This document shows, piece after piece, positions 24,374-29,830 of a stretch of DNA of 46,171 nucleotides (position 1 is its first letter; each line of letters begins with the position of its first letter). The notes under the pieces were generated by a model. It saw only the letters and a program-made list of their open reading frames with translations, did not search any database and had not been told where the DNA came from. Origin of the DNA: Bacteroidales bacterium (GTDB lineage Bacteria > Bacteroidota > Bacteroidia > Bacteroidales > P3). Both the position numbers and the translations under genes were made by a program. The stretch spans positions 1 to 46,171 of the forward strand of contig JAFVBA010000023.1 in NCBI GenBank assembly GCA_017480245.1, in the 5' to 3' direction.

Positions 24374-24424
24374 AAGACAATAAGAACGTATAAATAAAAT
24401 CTGAATAGCAGATTCATAAATCCG

Positions 24425-24459
24425 AACGGTGCTTTAATTAAAATAAAGTACCGTTTTTT
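24425..24459 (+). terminator. clpB terminator
   Basis: AACGGTGCTTTA (24425-24436) pairs with TAAAGTACCGTT (24444-24455), with one G-U pair, followed by a run of T. Confidence 0.85.
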
Positions 24460-24505
24460 CTTTTGTAAGTTATAGGATACATCCATAAATTTCCTTTCCT
24501 TTTTC

Positions 24506-24535
24506 TTGTAAGTTCAGAATTTCTTTGTATTTTTG
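24506..24535 (+). promoter_or_regulatory. Promoter of the structured RNA/T9SS cargo transcript
   Basis: TTG (24506-24508) is followed, after 19 bases, by TATTTTTG (24528-24535), which fits TAnnTTTG. Transcription would start near 24541, exactly where the first hairpin of the structured region begins, leaving a leader of about 275 bases before the ATG at 24818. Confidence 0.55.
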
Positions 24536-24540
24536 CAATC

Positions 24541-24708
24541 GCTTGTCGGGTGATAAGCAAAAGCGTTCTTGCTTTATAACTTGTATCTAAAAAGCGTGAG
24601 AAACTTTTAGGAACGTACAAGTTTAGCATAATGGTAATGCCATACTGTTTTGGCGTGTATTCCATTATAGTTATATTTTTACGTTCAGGTTTTAAATAAT
24701 TCTCACGC
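24541..24708 (+). ncRNA. Candidate structured RNA with nested stems and a pseudoknot
   Basis: Many perfect complementary segments lie in order. GCTTGTC/GATAAGC (24541-24547/24552-24558, loop GGGT). AAAGC/GCTTT (24560-24564/24571-24575). AACTTGTA/TACAAGTT (24578-24585/24616-24623), enclosing CTAAAA/TTTTAG (24587-24592/24605-24610). The loop of that hairpin, GCGTGAGAA (24594-24602), pairs perfectly with TTCTCACGC (24700-24708). GAACGTA/TACGTTC (24611-24617/24680-24686) and ATAATGG/CCATTAT (24628-24634/24662-24668) lie between. It follows a promoter and a terminator, so it is a separate unit from clpB. I match it to no known RNA family; it may be a long leader regulating the gene at 24818. Confidence 0.55.
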
Positions 24709-24733
24709 ACCTTAGATAGAGATATAAATGAGA

Positions 24734-24801
24734 TGTGGTTTCACGCTTTTTTGTATTATTTAAACAAGGGTCGAAGGAGCGACCTCTCCTTTGAAACCAC
24801 A
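24734..24801 (+). promoter_or_regulatory. Structured leader element before the T9SS cargo gene
   Basis: TGTGGTTTCA (24734-24743) pairs with TGAAACCACA (24792-24801), 10 of 10. Inside, GGTCG (24769-24773) pairs with CGACC (24780-24784) around the loop AAGGAG. That loop is also complementary to CTCCTT (24786-24791), giving mutually exclusive pairings. The element ends 16 bases before the ATG at 24818. Confidence 0.55.
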
Positions 24802-24817
24802 GGAAAAATATTTTATA

Positions 24818-25678
24818 ATGATTAGATTAAAGCAAATCATTACGCTTTTAACTCTTGCTGTATTAATGTTCGGACTTGTAAAGATTACATCAGCCCAAGA
24901 AGTAACAGAATATAAAACAATAGATGAGGTTGAGGGATATGACAGAGACGGAGACATTCTCTTTCCTGCTGAATATTGTCCTAATACCAGTTATTCCTAT
25001 TGCAATGGTGTTGTAAGAATTTTCGATTCAACCTTTACTTGTGTAAAGACTGTTCAATTAGTAAAGTACTCTGTAACCGGTGATGGAAAAGTTCATGATT
25101 ATTTGGGTATTTGTTGTATGTCTAAAAACTTATTTACGAACAGTAATAAGTATGAATTTGTCGTTATGGGAGATTTTAGTACCAGTGATGGTGATAATTA
25201 CATAACAAACAATTTCTATGGTATCTATAACGAAGACGGAGACCTTGTGTTTGATTTCGGAGGTAATGGTTGTCTTGATGGTAAGTTTTATGAGATAAAT
25301 AGGCATTGGACTTGGCAATTACCTTTTGTTGTAGGAAATAAATTGGTTGTCAATTATAATGATGGCCCTAACGGGAATAAATATTACAGTAAGATTTTTA
25401 ATATTTACGGAAACGCCAATAGTAGTATCAATCCTGTAATAGCATACAACCAAAATTCAAAACTTTATCCAAATCCTGCAAGAAACTCCGTTACTTTAGA
25501 ATATGACATCCAAGGACGGATGCAAGAAATGCAGATTGTGGATATTAATGGACGTGTAGTAGCAAGTTACTTACTTGACCCGTCACAAAAGCAAGTTAAT
25601 ATAAATACTTCCAACTACAAAAAGGGTGTTTATATCTACCGTTACGGCAATAATTCAGGTAAATTCGTAGTTGAATAG
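24818..25678 (+). CDS. Secreted protein with T9SS type A sorting domain
   Basis: A 286-residue cargo. I take the ATG at 24818 (MIRLKQIITLLTLAVLMFG, signal peptide ending ITSAQ) rather than a TTG at 24791, which lies inside the leader stem. The mature domain of about 185 residues has aromatic- and Asp/Asn-rich beta segments (YEFVVMGDFSTSDGDNYI, NNFYGIYNEDGDLVFDF) and reads like a small propeller or sandwich of unknown function. The last 70 residues are the sorting domain: SKLYPNPARNSVTL, DINGRVVASY, KKGVYIYRY, GKFVVE. A long structured leader precedes it and a terminator follows. Confidence 0.82.
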   Translation: MIRLKQIITLLTLAVLMFGLVKITSAQEVTEYKTIDEVEGYDRDGDILFPAEYCPNTSYSYCNGVVRIFDSTFTCVKTVQLVKYSVTGDGKVHDYLGICCMSKNLFTNSNKYEFVVMGDFSTSDGDNYITNNFYGIYNEDGDLVFDFGGNGCLDGKFYEINRHWTWQLPFVVGNKLVVNYNDGPNGNKYYSKIFNIYGNANSSINPVIAYNQNSKLYPNPARNSVTLEYDIQGRMQEMQIVDINGRVVASYLLDPSQKQVNINTSNYKKGVYIYRYGNNSGKFVVE

Positions 25679-27989: not shown

Positions 27990-28062
27990 GCCGATATAAC
28001 TCAGTTGGTAGAGTAGCTGATTTGTAATCAGCCTGTCGGGGGTTCAAGTCCCTCTATCGGCT
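27990..28062 (+). tRNA. tRNA-Thr (anticodon TGT)
   Basis: Acceptor arms GCCGATA/TATCGGC, D-arm AACTCAGTTGGTAGAG, anticodon stem CTGAT/ATCAG around TTTGTAA, T-arm GGGGGTTCAAGTCCCTC. The 3' CCA is not encoded. Confidence 0.96.
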
Positions 28063-28077
28063 CAATTTTTAGTTTTC

Positions 28078-28159
28078 GGGGAAGTCGCATAGCGGCAATT
28101 GCAACAGACTGTAAATCTGTCCTCTTCGGAGTTCGGTGGTTCGAGTCCACCCTTCCCCA
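28078..28159 (+). tRNA. tRNA-Tyr (anticodon GTA)
   Basis: Acceptor arms GGGGAAG/CTTCCCC, anticodon stem CAGA/TCTG around CTGTAAA, and the long variable arm typical of bacterial tRNA-Tyr (CCTCTTCGGAG). The 3' CCA is not encoded. Confidence 0.95.
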
Positions 28160-28234
28160 CAAAGTCAAAAGGTATTTTCTTATTTTTAGATATATTTACA
28201 TATTTATTTAAATATCTTAAAGACTTTAAAACAA

Positions 28235-28307
28235 GCGGGAATAGCTCATTTGGTAGAGCGATAGCCTTCCAAGCTATAGGTGGCGGGTTCGAGCCCCGTT
28301 TCCCGCT
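28235..28307 (+). tRNA. tRNA-Gly (anticodon TCC)
   Basis: Acceptor arms GCGGGAA/TTCCCGC, D-arm TAGCTCATTTGGTAGAGC, anticodon loop CTTCCAA, T-arm GGCGGGTTCGAGCCCCG. Confidence 0.96.
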
Positions 28308-28388
28308 CTGAAATTGAGCTGTCGGATGCTTTGAAAGGGGAGGAGTTTGCGTTAGGCTCGTCCTTATTGTTGTAAATGTGAAGTTTAT

Positions 28389-28460
28389 GCCGTTGTAGCT
28401 CAGTGGTAGAGTACTTCCTTGGTAAGGAAGGGGTCACGAGTTCAATCCTCGTCAACGGCT
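28389..28460 (+). tRNA. tRNA-Thr (anticodon GGT)
   Basis: Acceptor arms GCCGTTG/CAACGGC, D-arm TAGCTCAGTGGTAGAG, anticodon stem CTTCC/GGAAG around TTGGTAA, T-arm ACGAGTTCAATCCTCGT. Confidence 0.96.
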
Positions 28461-28521
28461 CAAGGGAGAAACAAAATGGTTAATTTAGAAAAGATTAATA
28501 ACAATTAAATAGACAAAAATT

Positions 28522-29709
28522 ATGGCAAAAGAGAAATTTGAGCGTACCAAACCACATGTTAATATAGGTACAATCGGTCACGTAGACCATGGTAAGACAA
28601 CTTTGACTGCAGCTATTACTCAGGTTTTAGCAAAGAAAGGTTTGTCTGAAATCAAATCATTTGATTCAATTGACTCTGCTCCTGAAGAAAAGGAAAGAGG
28701 TATTACAATCAACACTGCACACGTTGAGTATCAAACGGAAAATCGTCACTATGCTCATGTGGATTGTCCTGGTCACGCTGACTATGTAAAGAACATGGTT
28801 ACAGGTGCTGCTCAGATGGACGGTGCTATATTGGTTGTTGCTGCAACTGACGGTCCTATGCCTCAGACTCGTGAGCACATATTGTTAGCTCGTCAGGTAG
28901 GTGTTCCTCGTATGGTTGTATTCATGAACAAAGTGGATTTGGTTGATGACCCAGAGTTGTTAGACCTTGTTGAAATGGATATTAGAGATTTGTTGAGTTT
29001 CTATGAATTTGACGGTGACAATACTCCTATTATAAGAGGTTCTGCTCTTGGCGCATTGAACGGAGAACCACAGTGGGAAGAAAAAGTTGTTGAATTGATG
29101 GATGCAGTTGATACTTGGATTCCTCTTCCTACAAGAGATGTTGATAAAGACTTCTTAATGCCTGTTGAGGATGTATTCTCTATCACTGGACGTGGTACTG
29201 TTGCTACAGGTAGAATTGAAACAGGTATTATCAAGGTTGGCGACCCTGTTGATATCATTGGTATGGGTGCAGAAAAACTTAAATCAACTGTTACTGGTGT
29301 TGAGATGTTTAGAAAACTTCTTGATGAAGGTGAAGCTGGAGATAACGTAGGTTTGTTACTTCGTGGTATAGATAAAGACGAAATCCGCAGAGGTATGGTT
29401 ATTGCTAAACCTGGTACAATCACTCCTCACAAGAAATTCCAAGCAGAGGTTTATATCCTTAAGAAAGAAGAAGGCGGACGTCATACTCCGTTCCAGAATA
29501 GATACCGTCCTCAATTCTATTTCAGAACAACTGATGTTACTGGAGAAATCACTCTTCCTGAAGGACGTGAGTTAGTAATGCCTGGTGATAACTTGACTAT
29601 TACAGTTGAATTACTTTCTGAAATCGCATTGAACCTTAACTTACGTTTCGCTATCCGTGAAGGTGGTAGAACAGTTGGTGCGGGTCAGGTAACAAAGATT
29701 TTGGATTAA
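28522..29709 (+). CDS. tuf: Translation elongation factor Tu
   Basis: A 395-residue GTPase that delivers aminoacyl-tRNA to the ribosome. G1 is [10 protein letters not shown], switch I/G2 is [13 protein letters not shown]3 is [12 protein letters not shown], and the NKVD and GSALG motifs complete the G domain. Domains II and III follow with [12 protein letters not shown], ending [14 protein letters not shown]. Length and frame are normal. It lies 61 bases after tRNA-Thr(GGT) in the operon opened by the promoter at 27852. A terminator hairpin follows, before tRNA-Trp. Confidence 0.99.
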
Positions 29710-29723
29710 TAAAATAATAATAA

Positions 29724-29755
29724 AAAAGCAAGTTATTGTATTATAACTTGCTTTT
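29724..29755 (+). terminator. Hairpin between tuf and tRNA-Trp
   Basis: AAAAGCAAGTTAT (29724-29736) and ATAACTTGCTTTT (29743-29755) form a perfect 13-bp stem with a 6-base loop and a short T end. It is probably a partial terminator, because tRNA-Trp, secE and nusG follow without an obvious new promoter. Confidence 0.75.
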
Positions 29756-29759
29756 AAAC

Positions 29760-29830
29760 AGGGGCATGGTCTAATGGTAGAATAGCGGTCTCCAAAACCG
29801 TTGGTGGGAGTTCGATTCTCTCTGCCCCTG
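29760..29830 (+). tRNA. tRNA-Trp (anticodon CCA)
   Basis: Acceptor arms AGGGGCA/TGCCCCT, D-arm TGGTCTAATGGTAGAA, anticodon stem GCGGT/ACCGT around CTCCAAA. Its place between tuf and secE is conserved in bacteria. Confidence 0.96.

What the first reader, a model, noticed from the sequence alone, without database searches (positions are those of the whole stretch)
24541..24708. Undescribed structured RNA with a loop-to-downstream pseudoknot
This 168-base stretch contains six or more perfect stems of 5-9 bp. One is a 9-bp pairing between a hairpin loop (24594-24602) and a segment 98 bases downstream (24700-24708), and another a 7-bp pairing that competes with the 8-bp hairpin stem. A TAnnTTTG promoter sits just before the first stem and the clpB terminator ends before that. 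I recognise no tmRNA, RNase P, SRP, 6S or common riboswitch landmarks. It could be a stand-alone RNA or a long regulatory leader for the T9SS cargo at 24818.
Basis: partly seen in the sequence, partly recalled or inferred. Interest (0 to 1): 0.7.

Follow-up and report, generated by a model that had tools for sequence, protein, structure and literature searches.

The report
Widespread unnamed Bacteroidota leader RNA
The stretch is a real, strongly conserved folded RNA from a large family that matches nothing in the public RNA library; relatives carry up to 30 copies per genome, mostly just in front of unrelated accessory genes, and it also occurs on plasmids of human gut bacteria.

Summary
The window copy (core 24575-24728, leader about 24536-24817) folds far better than shuffles, and the 9-bp loop-to-downstream helix is exact. 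It belongs to a large family: 14 copies in the own genome and up to 30 in one relative; 84 of 190 genomes of the own family, 79 of 393 of the order, 54 of 345 of the class; also plasmids of gut Bacteroidales and viral contigs. On 72 distinct sequences 94.4% of 2885 pair cells hold, with 668 two-sided changes (184 expected), crossing helices included. No tested copy matched Rfam 15. A promoter-like TAnnTTTG precedes 175 of 202 copies. An ORF of at least 100 aa starts 25-180 nt behind 123 of 154. In 12 of 14 copy pairs with the same upstream flank the gene behind differs. The near-invariant GCGUG can pair with CACGC beside a U-rich tract, excluding the closing helix P1. Best reading: a portable, riboswitch-like attenuator leader. 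Structure is shown; regulation and signal are inferred. A catalogued candidate, HMP2_4205, might be the same RNA; this could not be checked.

The parts
24528..24535 (+). TAnnTTTG promoter-like element (TATTTTTG)
   Evidence: 175 of 202 copies have TAnnTTTG 25-150 nt upstream of the core, 23.5 expected from shuffles
24541..24558 (+). 5' hairpin GCTTGTC/GATAAGC; this arm varies in the family
24560..24565 (+). P1 5' arm AAAGCG (pairs with 24744-24749)
   Evidence: 163 of 195 copies find a 6-of-6 partner; 17 with shuffled upstream sequence, 118.5 (at most 126) with 3' arms of other copies
24575..24728 (+). conserved core (what models R1-R3 match)
24578..24583 (+). H1 5' arm (pairs with 24618-24623)
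   Evidence: crossing helix, not in the search models; two-sided changes; place
24584..24590 (+). Pb 5' arm UAUCUAA (pairs with 24712-24718)
   Evidence: its conserved 5-bp part has 97.5% of cells paired and two-sided changes in every pair
24591..24594 (+). hairpin A 5' arm AAAG (pairs with 24604-24607)
   Evidence: 92.7% of cells paired
24594..24602 (+).
   Evidence: 97.9% of cells paired, 6 of 8 pairs with two-sided changes
24604..24607 (+). hairpin A 3' arm CUUU
24611..24617 (+). Pd 5' arm (pairs with 24680-24686)
   Evidence: 97.1% of cells paired, all 6 counted pairs with two-sided changes; places
24618..24623 (+). H1 3' arm CAAGUU
24628..24634 (+). Pe 5' arm (pairs with 24662-24668)
24639..24654 (+). 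Pf apical hairpin GCCA/TGGC
24653..24657 (+). Pt 5' arm GCGUG: most conserved segment of the core, complementary to 24742-24746
   Evidence: 99-100% conserved in 73 rows; the variable bases beside it covary. Only 5 bp in this copy
24662..24668 (+). Pe 3' arm
24671..24679 (+). H7 5' arm (pairs with 24719-24727)
   Evidence: crossing helix, not in the search models; 98.9% of cells, 91.2% for 4 of its pairs
24680..24686 (+). Pd 3' arm
24687..24690 (+). hairpin B 5' arm AGGU (pairs with 24709-24712)
   Evidence: 90.7% of cells paired, two-sided changes in 1 of 4 pairs; places read from the stretch located
24700..24708 (+). Pc 3' arm UUCUCACGC
24709..24712 (+). hairpin B 3' arm ACCU
24712..24718 (+). 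Pb 3' arm UUAGAUA
24719..24727 (+). H7 3' arm
24735..24743 (+). P0 5' arm GUGGUUUCA (pairs with 24792-24800)
   Evidence: in 145 scorable copies own arms score 6.46, arms of other copies 5.58; at least 7 in 60 of 145 against 7.4% of swapped combinations
24742..24752 (+). Pt 3' arm CACGC followed by UUUUUU; terminator-like, shares CGC with the P1 3' arm
24744..24749 (+). P1 3' arm CGCUUU
24769..24791 (+). hairpin GGTCG-AAGGAG-CGACC whose loop is complementary to CTCCTT 24786-24791
   Evidence: seen in the sequence; not tested statistically
24792..24800 (+). P0 3' arm UGAAACCAC, just before the start region
24818..25678 (+). downstream gene: protein with a type IX secretion sorting domain (Por_Secre_tail)

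Best explanation
24536-24817 is the 5' leader of the T9SS-cargo mRNA and one copy of a large, unnamed family of structured cis-acting leader RNAs in Bacteroidota. Shown from sequence: covarying helices in which two large hairpin loops (closed by H1 and H7) are zipped together by Pb, Pc and Pd. In the window copy H1, Pb, H7 and Pd follow each other without an unpaired nucleotide, like a four-way junction, and Pc can form as a kiss between small hairpins A and B. Supported: a closing helix P1, and a segment just before its 3' arm that pairs with a site shortly before the start codon (P0). Inferred: the near-invariant GCGUG of the Pe/Pf arm pairs with CACGC beside a U-rich tract (Pt) as an intrinsic terminator or stalled state; Pt excludes P1 because both use the same CGC. 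Inferred: a signal (metabolite, nucleotide messenger, protein or physical state) shifts the balance between core + P1 (read-through, P0 formed) and Pt (attenuation). Shown as a pattern, cause inferred: the leader is a portable control module, because behind the same upstream flank and RNA related genomes carry different accessory genes, and on an annotated plasmid it stands between relaxase and cargo.
For: Structure: 30 copies (A1): 93.3% of 1382 cells paired (shuffles 80.3), 189 two-sided changes (55.4); the 12 highest MI-APC column pairs are all base pairs. 72 distinct rows (A7): 94.4% of 2885 cells (72.4), 668 two-sided changes (184), score 0.587 (0.195), slid versions at most 47.7%. 29 copies from outside the order (A9): 93.7% of 788 cells (59.7), 264 two-sided changes (78.6). 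G-U cells 259 against A-C cells 43, so this strand acts as RNA. Core fold z below -2 in 202 of 203 copies. Leader: ORF of at least 100 aa 25-180 nt behind 123 of 154 copies, mirror 26 of 148; TAnnTTTG in 175 of 202, 23.5 expected. Switch: P1 in 163 of 195, 17 with shuffled upstream sequence, 118.5 with swapped arms; P0; Pt own 26.1 against permuted 23.9 (sd 0.23, maximum of 300 is 24.6) in 129 of 154 copies; GCGUG most conserved. Portability: first downstream protein not homologous in 12 of 14 pairs with homologous upstream flank, from six flank groups; plasmid context.
Against: No expression or ligand evidence. The downstream genes share no evident pathway (70 Pfam families among 122 proteins, of which the call lists 25), which does not point to one metabolite. 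Apart from GCGUG, few positions outside the counted helices are conserved (8 of 126 well-filled columns reach 90%, 5 of them GCGUG), unusual for a small-molecule aptamer. In the window copy Pt is only 5 bp with a loop of over 80 nt; the terminator scan allows loops of 3-8 and so could neither find nor exclude it. The P1, P0 and Pt controls do not correct for relatedness. 25 of 154 copies could not be scored for Pt and 9 of 154 for P0. 31 of 154 copies, and 10 of 29 from outside the order, lack a 100-aa ORF at the expected place. That H1 and H7 coexist with Pb, Pc and Pd in one molecule is not shown.
Confidence: 0.55

Rival explanations
1. A stand-alone non-coding RNA with its own promoter and an end at the U-rich tract; the gene behind it is transcribed by read-through or from its own promoter.
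For: TAnnTTTG before 175 of 202 copies and a U-rich tract next to CACGC. For some copies no ORF of 50 aa was found close behind: L228, L229, L252, L253, L254 and L198 outside the order (L253 ends with its contig), L239 on a plasmid, and 11 of 154.
Against: Same-strand gene behind most copies, and a helix (P0) that joins the RNA to the sequence shortly before the start codon.
Confidence: 0.2
2. A constitutive 5' element: a stabilising or translation-promoting leader that lets incoming genes be expressed in many Bacteroidota hosts, without sensing anything.
For: Unrelated accessory genes behind the RNA, plasmids, promoter-like element, few conserved unpaired bases.
Against: P1 and Pt exclude each other, both have support, and they lie next to a U-rich tract; this looks like a switch.
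Confidence: 0.17
3. A DNA-level element (recombination or attachment site, single-stranded folded DNA) that exchanges cargo, like an integron site.
For: Homology breaks 17-63 nt after the core in 7 of the 10 pairs whose 5' break was printed; the other 3 share the gene too. Different genes behind the same flank in 12 of 14 pairs.
Against: G-U pairs far outnumber A-C pairs (259 against 43), so selection acts on one strand as RNA. The RNA lies 5' of genes and copies are scattered. Recombination between dispersed copies would give the same breaks. No integrase search was made.
Confidence: 0.05
4. Not a functional RNA: a dispersed repeat whose copies look alike by descent.
For: Multi-copy in a genome.
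Against: Hundreds of two-sided changes that preserve pairing are not expected from shared descent alone.
Confidence: 0.02

Closest known systems
Cobalamin riboswitches (Rfam RF00174; their features are recalled)
   Same: Leader RNA with a four-way junction core, a kissing loop, and a regulatory pairing near the start codon.
   Different: No match to any Rfam model in the copies tested; the downstream proteins show no common pathway.
Second-messenger riboswitches such as GEMM/c-di-GMP (recalled)
   Same: Many copies per genome in front of unrelated genes for surface and accessory proteins.
   Different: No Rfam match; ligand unknown; about 200 nt with an interlocked double-loop core.
HMP2_4205 of Fremin and Bhatt 2021 (PMC8040213; abstract and matched passages seen)
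   Same: 132-bp palindromic candidate mostly in Bacteroidetes, commonly near TPR genes, predicted to be a Rho-independent terminator. Our core is 123-167 nt, median 137, gives weak antisense matches (2 of 64 rows, 7 of 48), precedes some TPR/Sel1 genes and has a terminator-like helix.
   Different: The passages seen mention no pseudoknot (term search: 0 hits) and no exchange of the genes behind it.
Bacteroidetes candidate RNAs of Weinberg 2010 (PMC2864571; matched passages seen)
   Same: Conserved Bacteroidetes RNAs found by comparative genomics.
   Different: Those with an Rfam number give no match here; Bacteroides-2 and GUCCY-hairpin have no Rfam number in the table seen and were not tested.
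Integron attC sites (recalled)
   Same: Folded element at a border where cargo genes are exchanged.
   Different: Lies 5' of the gene with its own promoter-like element, shows RNA-type G-U pairing, scattered copies.

Membership tests
Any of 4227 Rfam 15 families | Covariance-model score at or above the gathering score | tested here: not met
   Window and 35 further loci at gathering scores: only tRNAs. At relaxed E-values: window 24380-24900 up to E 5, four loci up to E 1, three up to E 0.5; nothing near a cut-off
Structured cis-regulatory leader | Covarying secondary structure | tested here: met
Structured cis-regulatory leader | Position shortly upstream of a gene on the same strand | tested here: met
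   123 of 154 copies, mirror 26 of 148
Structured cis-regulatory leader | Co-transcription with the gene and an effect on its expression | not testable with these tools
   no RNA-seq or bench data
Riboswitch | Mutually exclusive helices linking core and expression platform | tested here: inconclusive
   P1, P0 and Pt all beat swap controls, without correction for relatedness
Riboswitch | Selective ligand binding | not testable with these tools
   needs in-line probing
Intrinsic transcription terminator | GC-rich short-loop hairpin plus U tract | tested here: inconclusive
   Pt plus U-rich tract in the family, but with a loop far beyond the 3-8 nt of the scan
Cobalamin riboswitch | Match to the family model | tested here: not met
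Integron attC | Located 3' of cassette genes | tested here: not met
   the RNA lies 5' of genes
Integron attC | Arrays served by an integron integrase | not tested
   no integrase search was made

The most novel reading that the evidence does not exclude
A phylum-wide RNA control module for accessory genes: chromosomes and mobile elements of Bacteroidota put unrelated incoming cargo (surface proteins, restriction and DarT-type genes, a beta-lactamase) behind one interlocked RNA switch, so that one shared cellular signal gates much of the accessory genome.
Probability: 0.3. Interest if true: 0.93.

Novelty: new variant of a known kind. Interest (0 to 1): 0.82.

Why it matters
A structured RNA this widespread and this multi-copy, unmatched in Rfam 15 although it occurs on plasmids of human gut bacteria, is unusual (general knowledge, not a tally made here). 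If it regulates, it would be a shared control layer over accessory and mobile genes in a dominant gut phylum, including defence-type genes and a resistance gene, and each copy is a natural reporter construct for finding the signal.

Tried and rejected
Known families: Rfam at gathering and at relaxed E-values gave only tRNAs or weak matches far below cut-offs. A scan of viral contigs with the genus-specific pattern found nothing. A broader pattern found 19 contigs: 14 match model R3 in full, 2 are cut off by the end of the stretch, 3 (L213, L214, L219) do not match. The window RNA has no blastn match in the plasmid collection; the RNA of a relative from another family has seven. Three short matches of 21-36 nt in other genera (G053, G055, G059) were not counted.

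I first read TTTCACGCTTTTTT as pairing with the Pc 5' arm; dropped, because copies with GCCTGAG in that arm break it. In the window genus, CCUUU before the start could pair with AAAGG and hide the start region; left untested, since Bacteroidetes are said to lack Shine-Dalgarno sites in general (abstract of PMC3155529, seen in the listing). A shared pathway of the genes behind the RNA was sought and not found (122 of the 143 downstream ORFs were given, 21 left out, among them short ones and near-duplicates). Literature searches for a prior description; nothing beyond the papers named, but only openly licensed PubMed Central text is searched. Limits of the structure counts: A7 and A9 are fitted to Pb, Pc, Pd, Pe and Pf; the columns of H1, H7, A and B on A7 were picked by their pairing, after H1, H7 and A had been seen on A1. 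The signal-peptide count is a crude hydrophobicity rule.

Full report
OBSERVATION. The stretch 24541-24708 folds at -55.6 kcal/mol against -32.1 (sd 4.0) for shuffles, with 0 of 200 as good; the longer leader 24535-24835 has z -7.52. The other stems are present too, as are the TAnnTTTG element and the terminator-like hairpin behind clpB. Rfam gives nothing over the RNA.

A FAMILY, NOT A SINGLE RNA. A DNA search of the own genome found five further long copies of 73-76% identity. An alignment of 30 copies from the own genus gave model R1; wider sets gave R2 and R3. Tallies: 84 of 190 genomes of the own family (R1, E 0.01); 79 of 393 of the order, 50 of 207 genera (R2, E 0.001); 5 of 395 of a phylum sample (R2); 54 of 345 of a class sample, 35 of 178 genera, 47 of the 54 outside the own order (R3). 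E-values are per genome, so about two chance genomes are expected and fewer than one in each of the others. Large samples use strict filters that score few candidates per genome, so copy counts there are lower bounds. With the fuller filters, on 20 chosen genomes that all had matches before, the own genome has 14 copies, G001 25, G460 30, a 3.1-Mb single-contig genome 5, and four class-level outgroups 1-3. Named carriers are plasmid records of Parabacteroides distasonis, Phocaeicola massiliensis, Bacteroides finegoldii, Bacteroides uniformis and Prevotella sp. oral taxon 299 (seven records); six of these loci were scored with R3 and all match, 84-126 bits.

STRUCTURE. In the first alignment the 12 highest-ranking column pairs by mutual information are all base pairs of Pb, Pc and Pd. 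Counting the pseudoknotted structure on 30 copies gave 93.3% of 1382 cells paired (shuffles 80.3), 189 two-sided changes (55.4), slid versions at most 48.4%. On 73 matches from across the class (72 distinct) it gave 94.4% of 2885 cells (72.4), 668 two-sided changes (184), score 0.587 (0.195), slid versions at most 47.7%. On 29 copies from outside the order the nested helices alone gave 93.7% of 788 cells (59.7), 264 two-sided changes (78.6), score 0.768 (0.187). These two alignments were fitted to Pb, Pc, Pd, Pe and Pf, which favours those. H1, H7, A and B were not in the models, but their columns on A7 were picked by pairing; they hold two-sided changes in 4 of 5, 3 of 4, 3 of 4 and 1 of 4 pairs. 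G-U cells outnumber A-C cells 259 to 43, so this strand works as RNA. The core folds with z below -2 in 202 of 203 copies and below -3 in 187, against 30 Markov shuffles each.

In order along the chain: H1 5', Pb 5', hairpin A holding Pc 5', Pd 5', H1 3', the arm Pe/Pf, H7 5', Pd 3', hairpin B holding Pc 3', Pb 3', H7 3'. So the loop closed by H1 and the loop closed by H7 are zipped together by Pb, Pc and Pd. In the window copy H1, Pb, H7 and Pd follow each other without an unpaired base, the topology of a perfect four-way junction. Hairpins A and B have complementary loops. Whether A and B stay closed when Pc forms, and whether all helices coexist or alternate, cannot be decided from sequence.

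THE 3' PART. P1 (AAAGCG 24560-24565 with CGCUUU 24744-24749) closes the core: 163 of 195 scorable copies find a 6-of-6 partner upstream, against 17 with shuffled upstream sequence and 118.5 (at most 126 in 50 rounds) with 3' arms of other copies. The 8 nt before the P1 3' arm pair with a site shortly before the start codon (P0): own arms score 6.46, arms of other copies 5.58, and 60 of 145 reach 7 against 7.4% of 19,580 swapped combinations. The most conserved segment of the core is GCGUG in the Pe/Pf arm (99-100% of 73 rows). It is complementary to the CACGC of P0/P1, and the variable bases beside it covary: 26.1 against 23.9 (sd 0.23) for permuted partners in 129 of 154 copies, and 13.1 against 11.4 for the variable part alone; within the two sequence groups taken apart, 23.8 against 22.7 and 27.2 against 26.0, each above all 300 permutations. 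A U-rich tract follows (67% T in 12 nt). This helix, Pt, excludes P1. None of these tests corrects for relatedness. In the window copy Pt is only GCGUG/CACGC, and its loop is too long for the simple terminator scan.

GENE CONTEXT. A same-strand ORF of at least 100 aa starts 25-180 nt behind 123 of 154 copies; the mirror control gives 26 of 148. Among the 143 copies with an ORF of at least 50 aa in that preset range the median distance is 78 nt, quartiles 68 and 98. The 100-aa figure is 18 of 20 for plasmid and viral copies and 19 of 29 for copies outside the order. TAnnTTTG lies upstream in 175 of 202 copies, 23.5 expected; outside the order it is 17 of 29, 3.7 expected. By a crude rule 100 of 143 downstream proteins have a hydrophobic N-terminal stretch. 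Pfam finds 70 families among 122 of these proteins, 25 of them listed: Por_Secre_tail 7, BspA repeats 5, Sel1 3, WG 3, TPR_16 3, HTH_26 3, and single GmrSD, DNA methylase and aminoglycoside adenylyltransferase domains among others. The window gene has Por_Secre_tail. No common pathway emerges.

CARGO EXCHANGE. Some loci share upstream flank and RNA but have different genes behind it. Of 10 pairs whose 5' break was printed, 7 break 17-63 nt after the core and 3 share the gene too. Of 14 pairs from different genomes with homologous upstream flanks, 12 have a first downstream protein without blastp homology and 2 the same. The 12 pairs come from six flank groups, so they are about six cases, one of them a flank of mobile elements. 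Other loci share RNA and gene but not the upstream flank. In B. uniformis pBUN1 the annotated order is primase-helicase, toprim, MobV relaxase, [RNA], beta-lactamase. In P. distasonis it is AAA ATPase, toprim, hypothetical protein, [RNA], DUF4433 protein; the hypothetical protein has no Pfam match, the cargo has a DarT domain. Protein ends that look like that of the MobV relaxase precede the RNA in L207, L212, L221, L125, L156 and L160 (by eye). Recombination between dispersed copies, or insertion of genes behind the leader, would both explain the exchange.

INTERPRETATION. That this is a functional RNA family seems near certain. That most copies in Bacteroidales are leaders is well supported. 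That they regulate by a P1/Pt switch is a reasoned guess, and the signal is unknown. Multi-copy leaders in front of unrelated surface and accessory genes resemble second-messenger riboswitches (recalled), but few unpaired bases are conserved, so a protein or RNA partner, or a constitutive role, remain open.

PRIOR WORK. Nine searches of the open PubMed Central library gave no description. Matched passages, not whole papers, were seen in PMC2864571 and PMC8040213 (abstract, passages); term searches for Bacteroidetes names found nothing in PMC11109978 and PMC8632094. PMC8040213 lists a 132-bp palindromic candidate mostly in Bacteroidetes, HMP2_4205, near TPR genes and predicted to be a Rho-independent terminator; it may be part of this family, and its supplement could not be opened here.

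Noticed in passing
L194:567-699 and 1692-1824: Two copies of equal score (55.4 bits) about 1.1 kb apart, each followed by a homologous gene: a tandem duplication of RNA plus gene.
   Followed up: partly
L205, L208, L211, L215, L216, L220 (IMG/VR contigs): Copies directly upstream of one family of 363-373-aa proteins starting MDFKDSI, which I take from memory, untested, for restriction-like; the RNA may be carried by phages or other mobile elements.
   Followed up: no
L066, L068, L073, L079, L171, L143: A second shared stretch GTTGCGCCCGACAC, followed by AGGG, between the RNA and the start codon in several leaders outside the window genus.
   Followed up: no
L239:3487-3624: A copy on a P. distasonis plasmid with an altered 5' part and no ORF of 50 aa starting 25-200 nt behind it; the next annotated gene starts about 400 nt further.
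   Followed up: no
G013 C4:140451, C7:133011, C8:105962: Three copies with equal scores (54.6 bits), perhaps recent identical duplicates.
   Followed up: no
L070, L074, L083, L084, L111, L139, L166, L172, L179: A recurrent family of proteins with a VTKFLGIPxDGTK-like motif behind a hydrophobic N-terminus follows the RNA in several families; function unknown.
   Followed up: no
window 27990-29830: Five tRNA genes around an elongation factor Tu-like ORF at 28522-29709 (named from memory), an ordinary arrangement.
   Followed up: no
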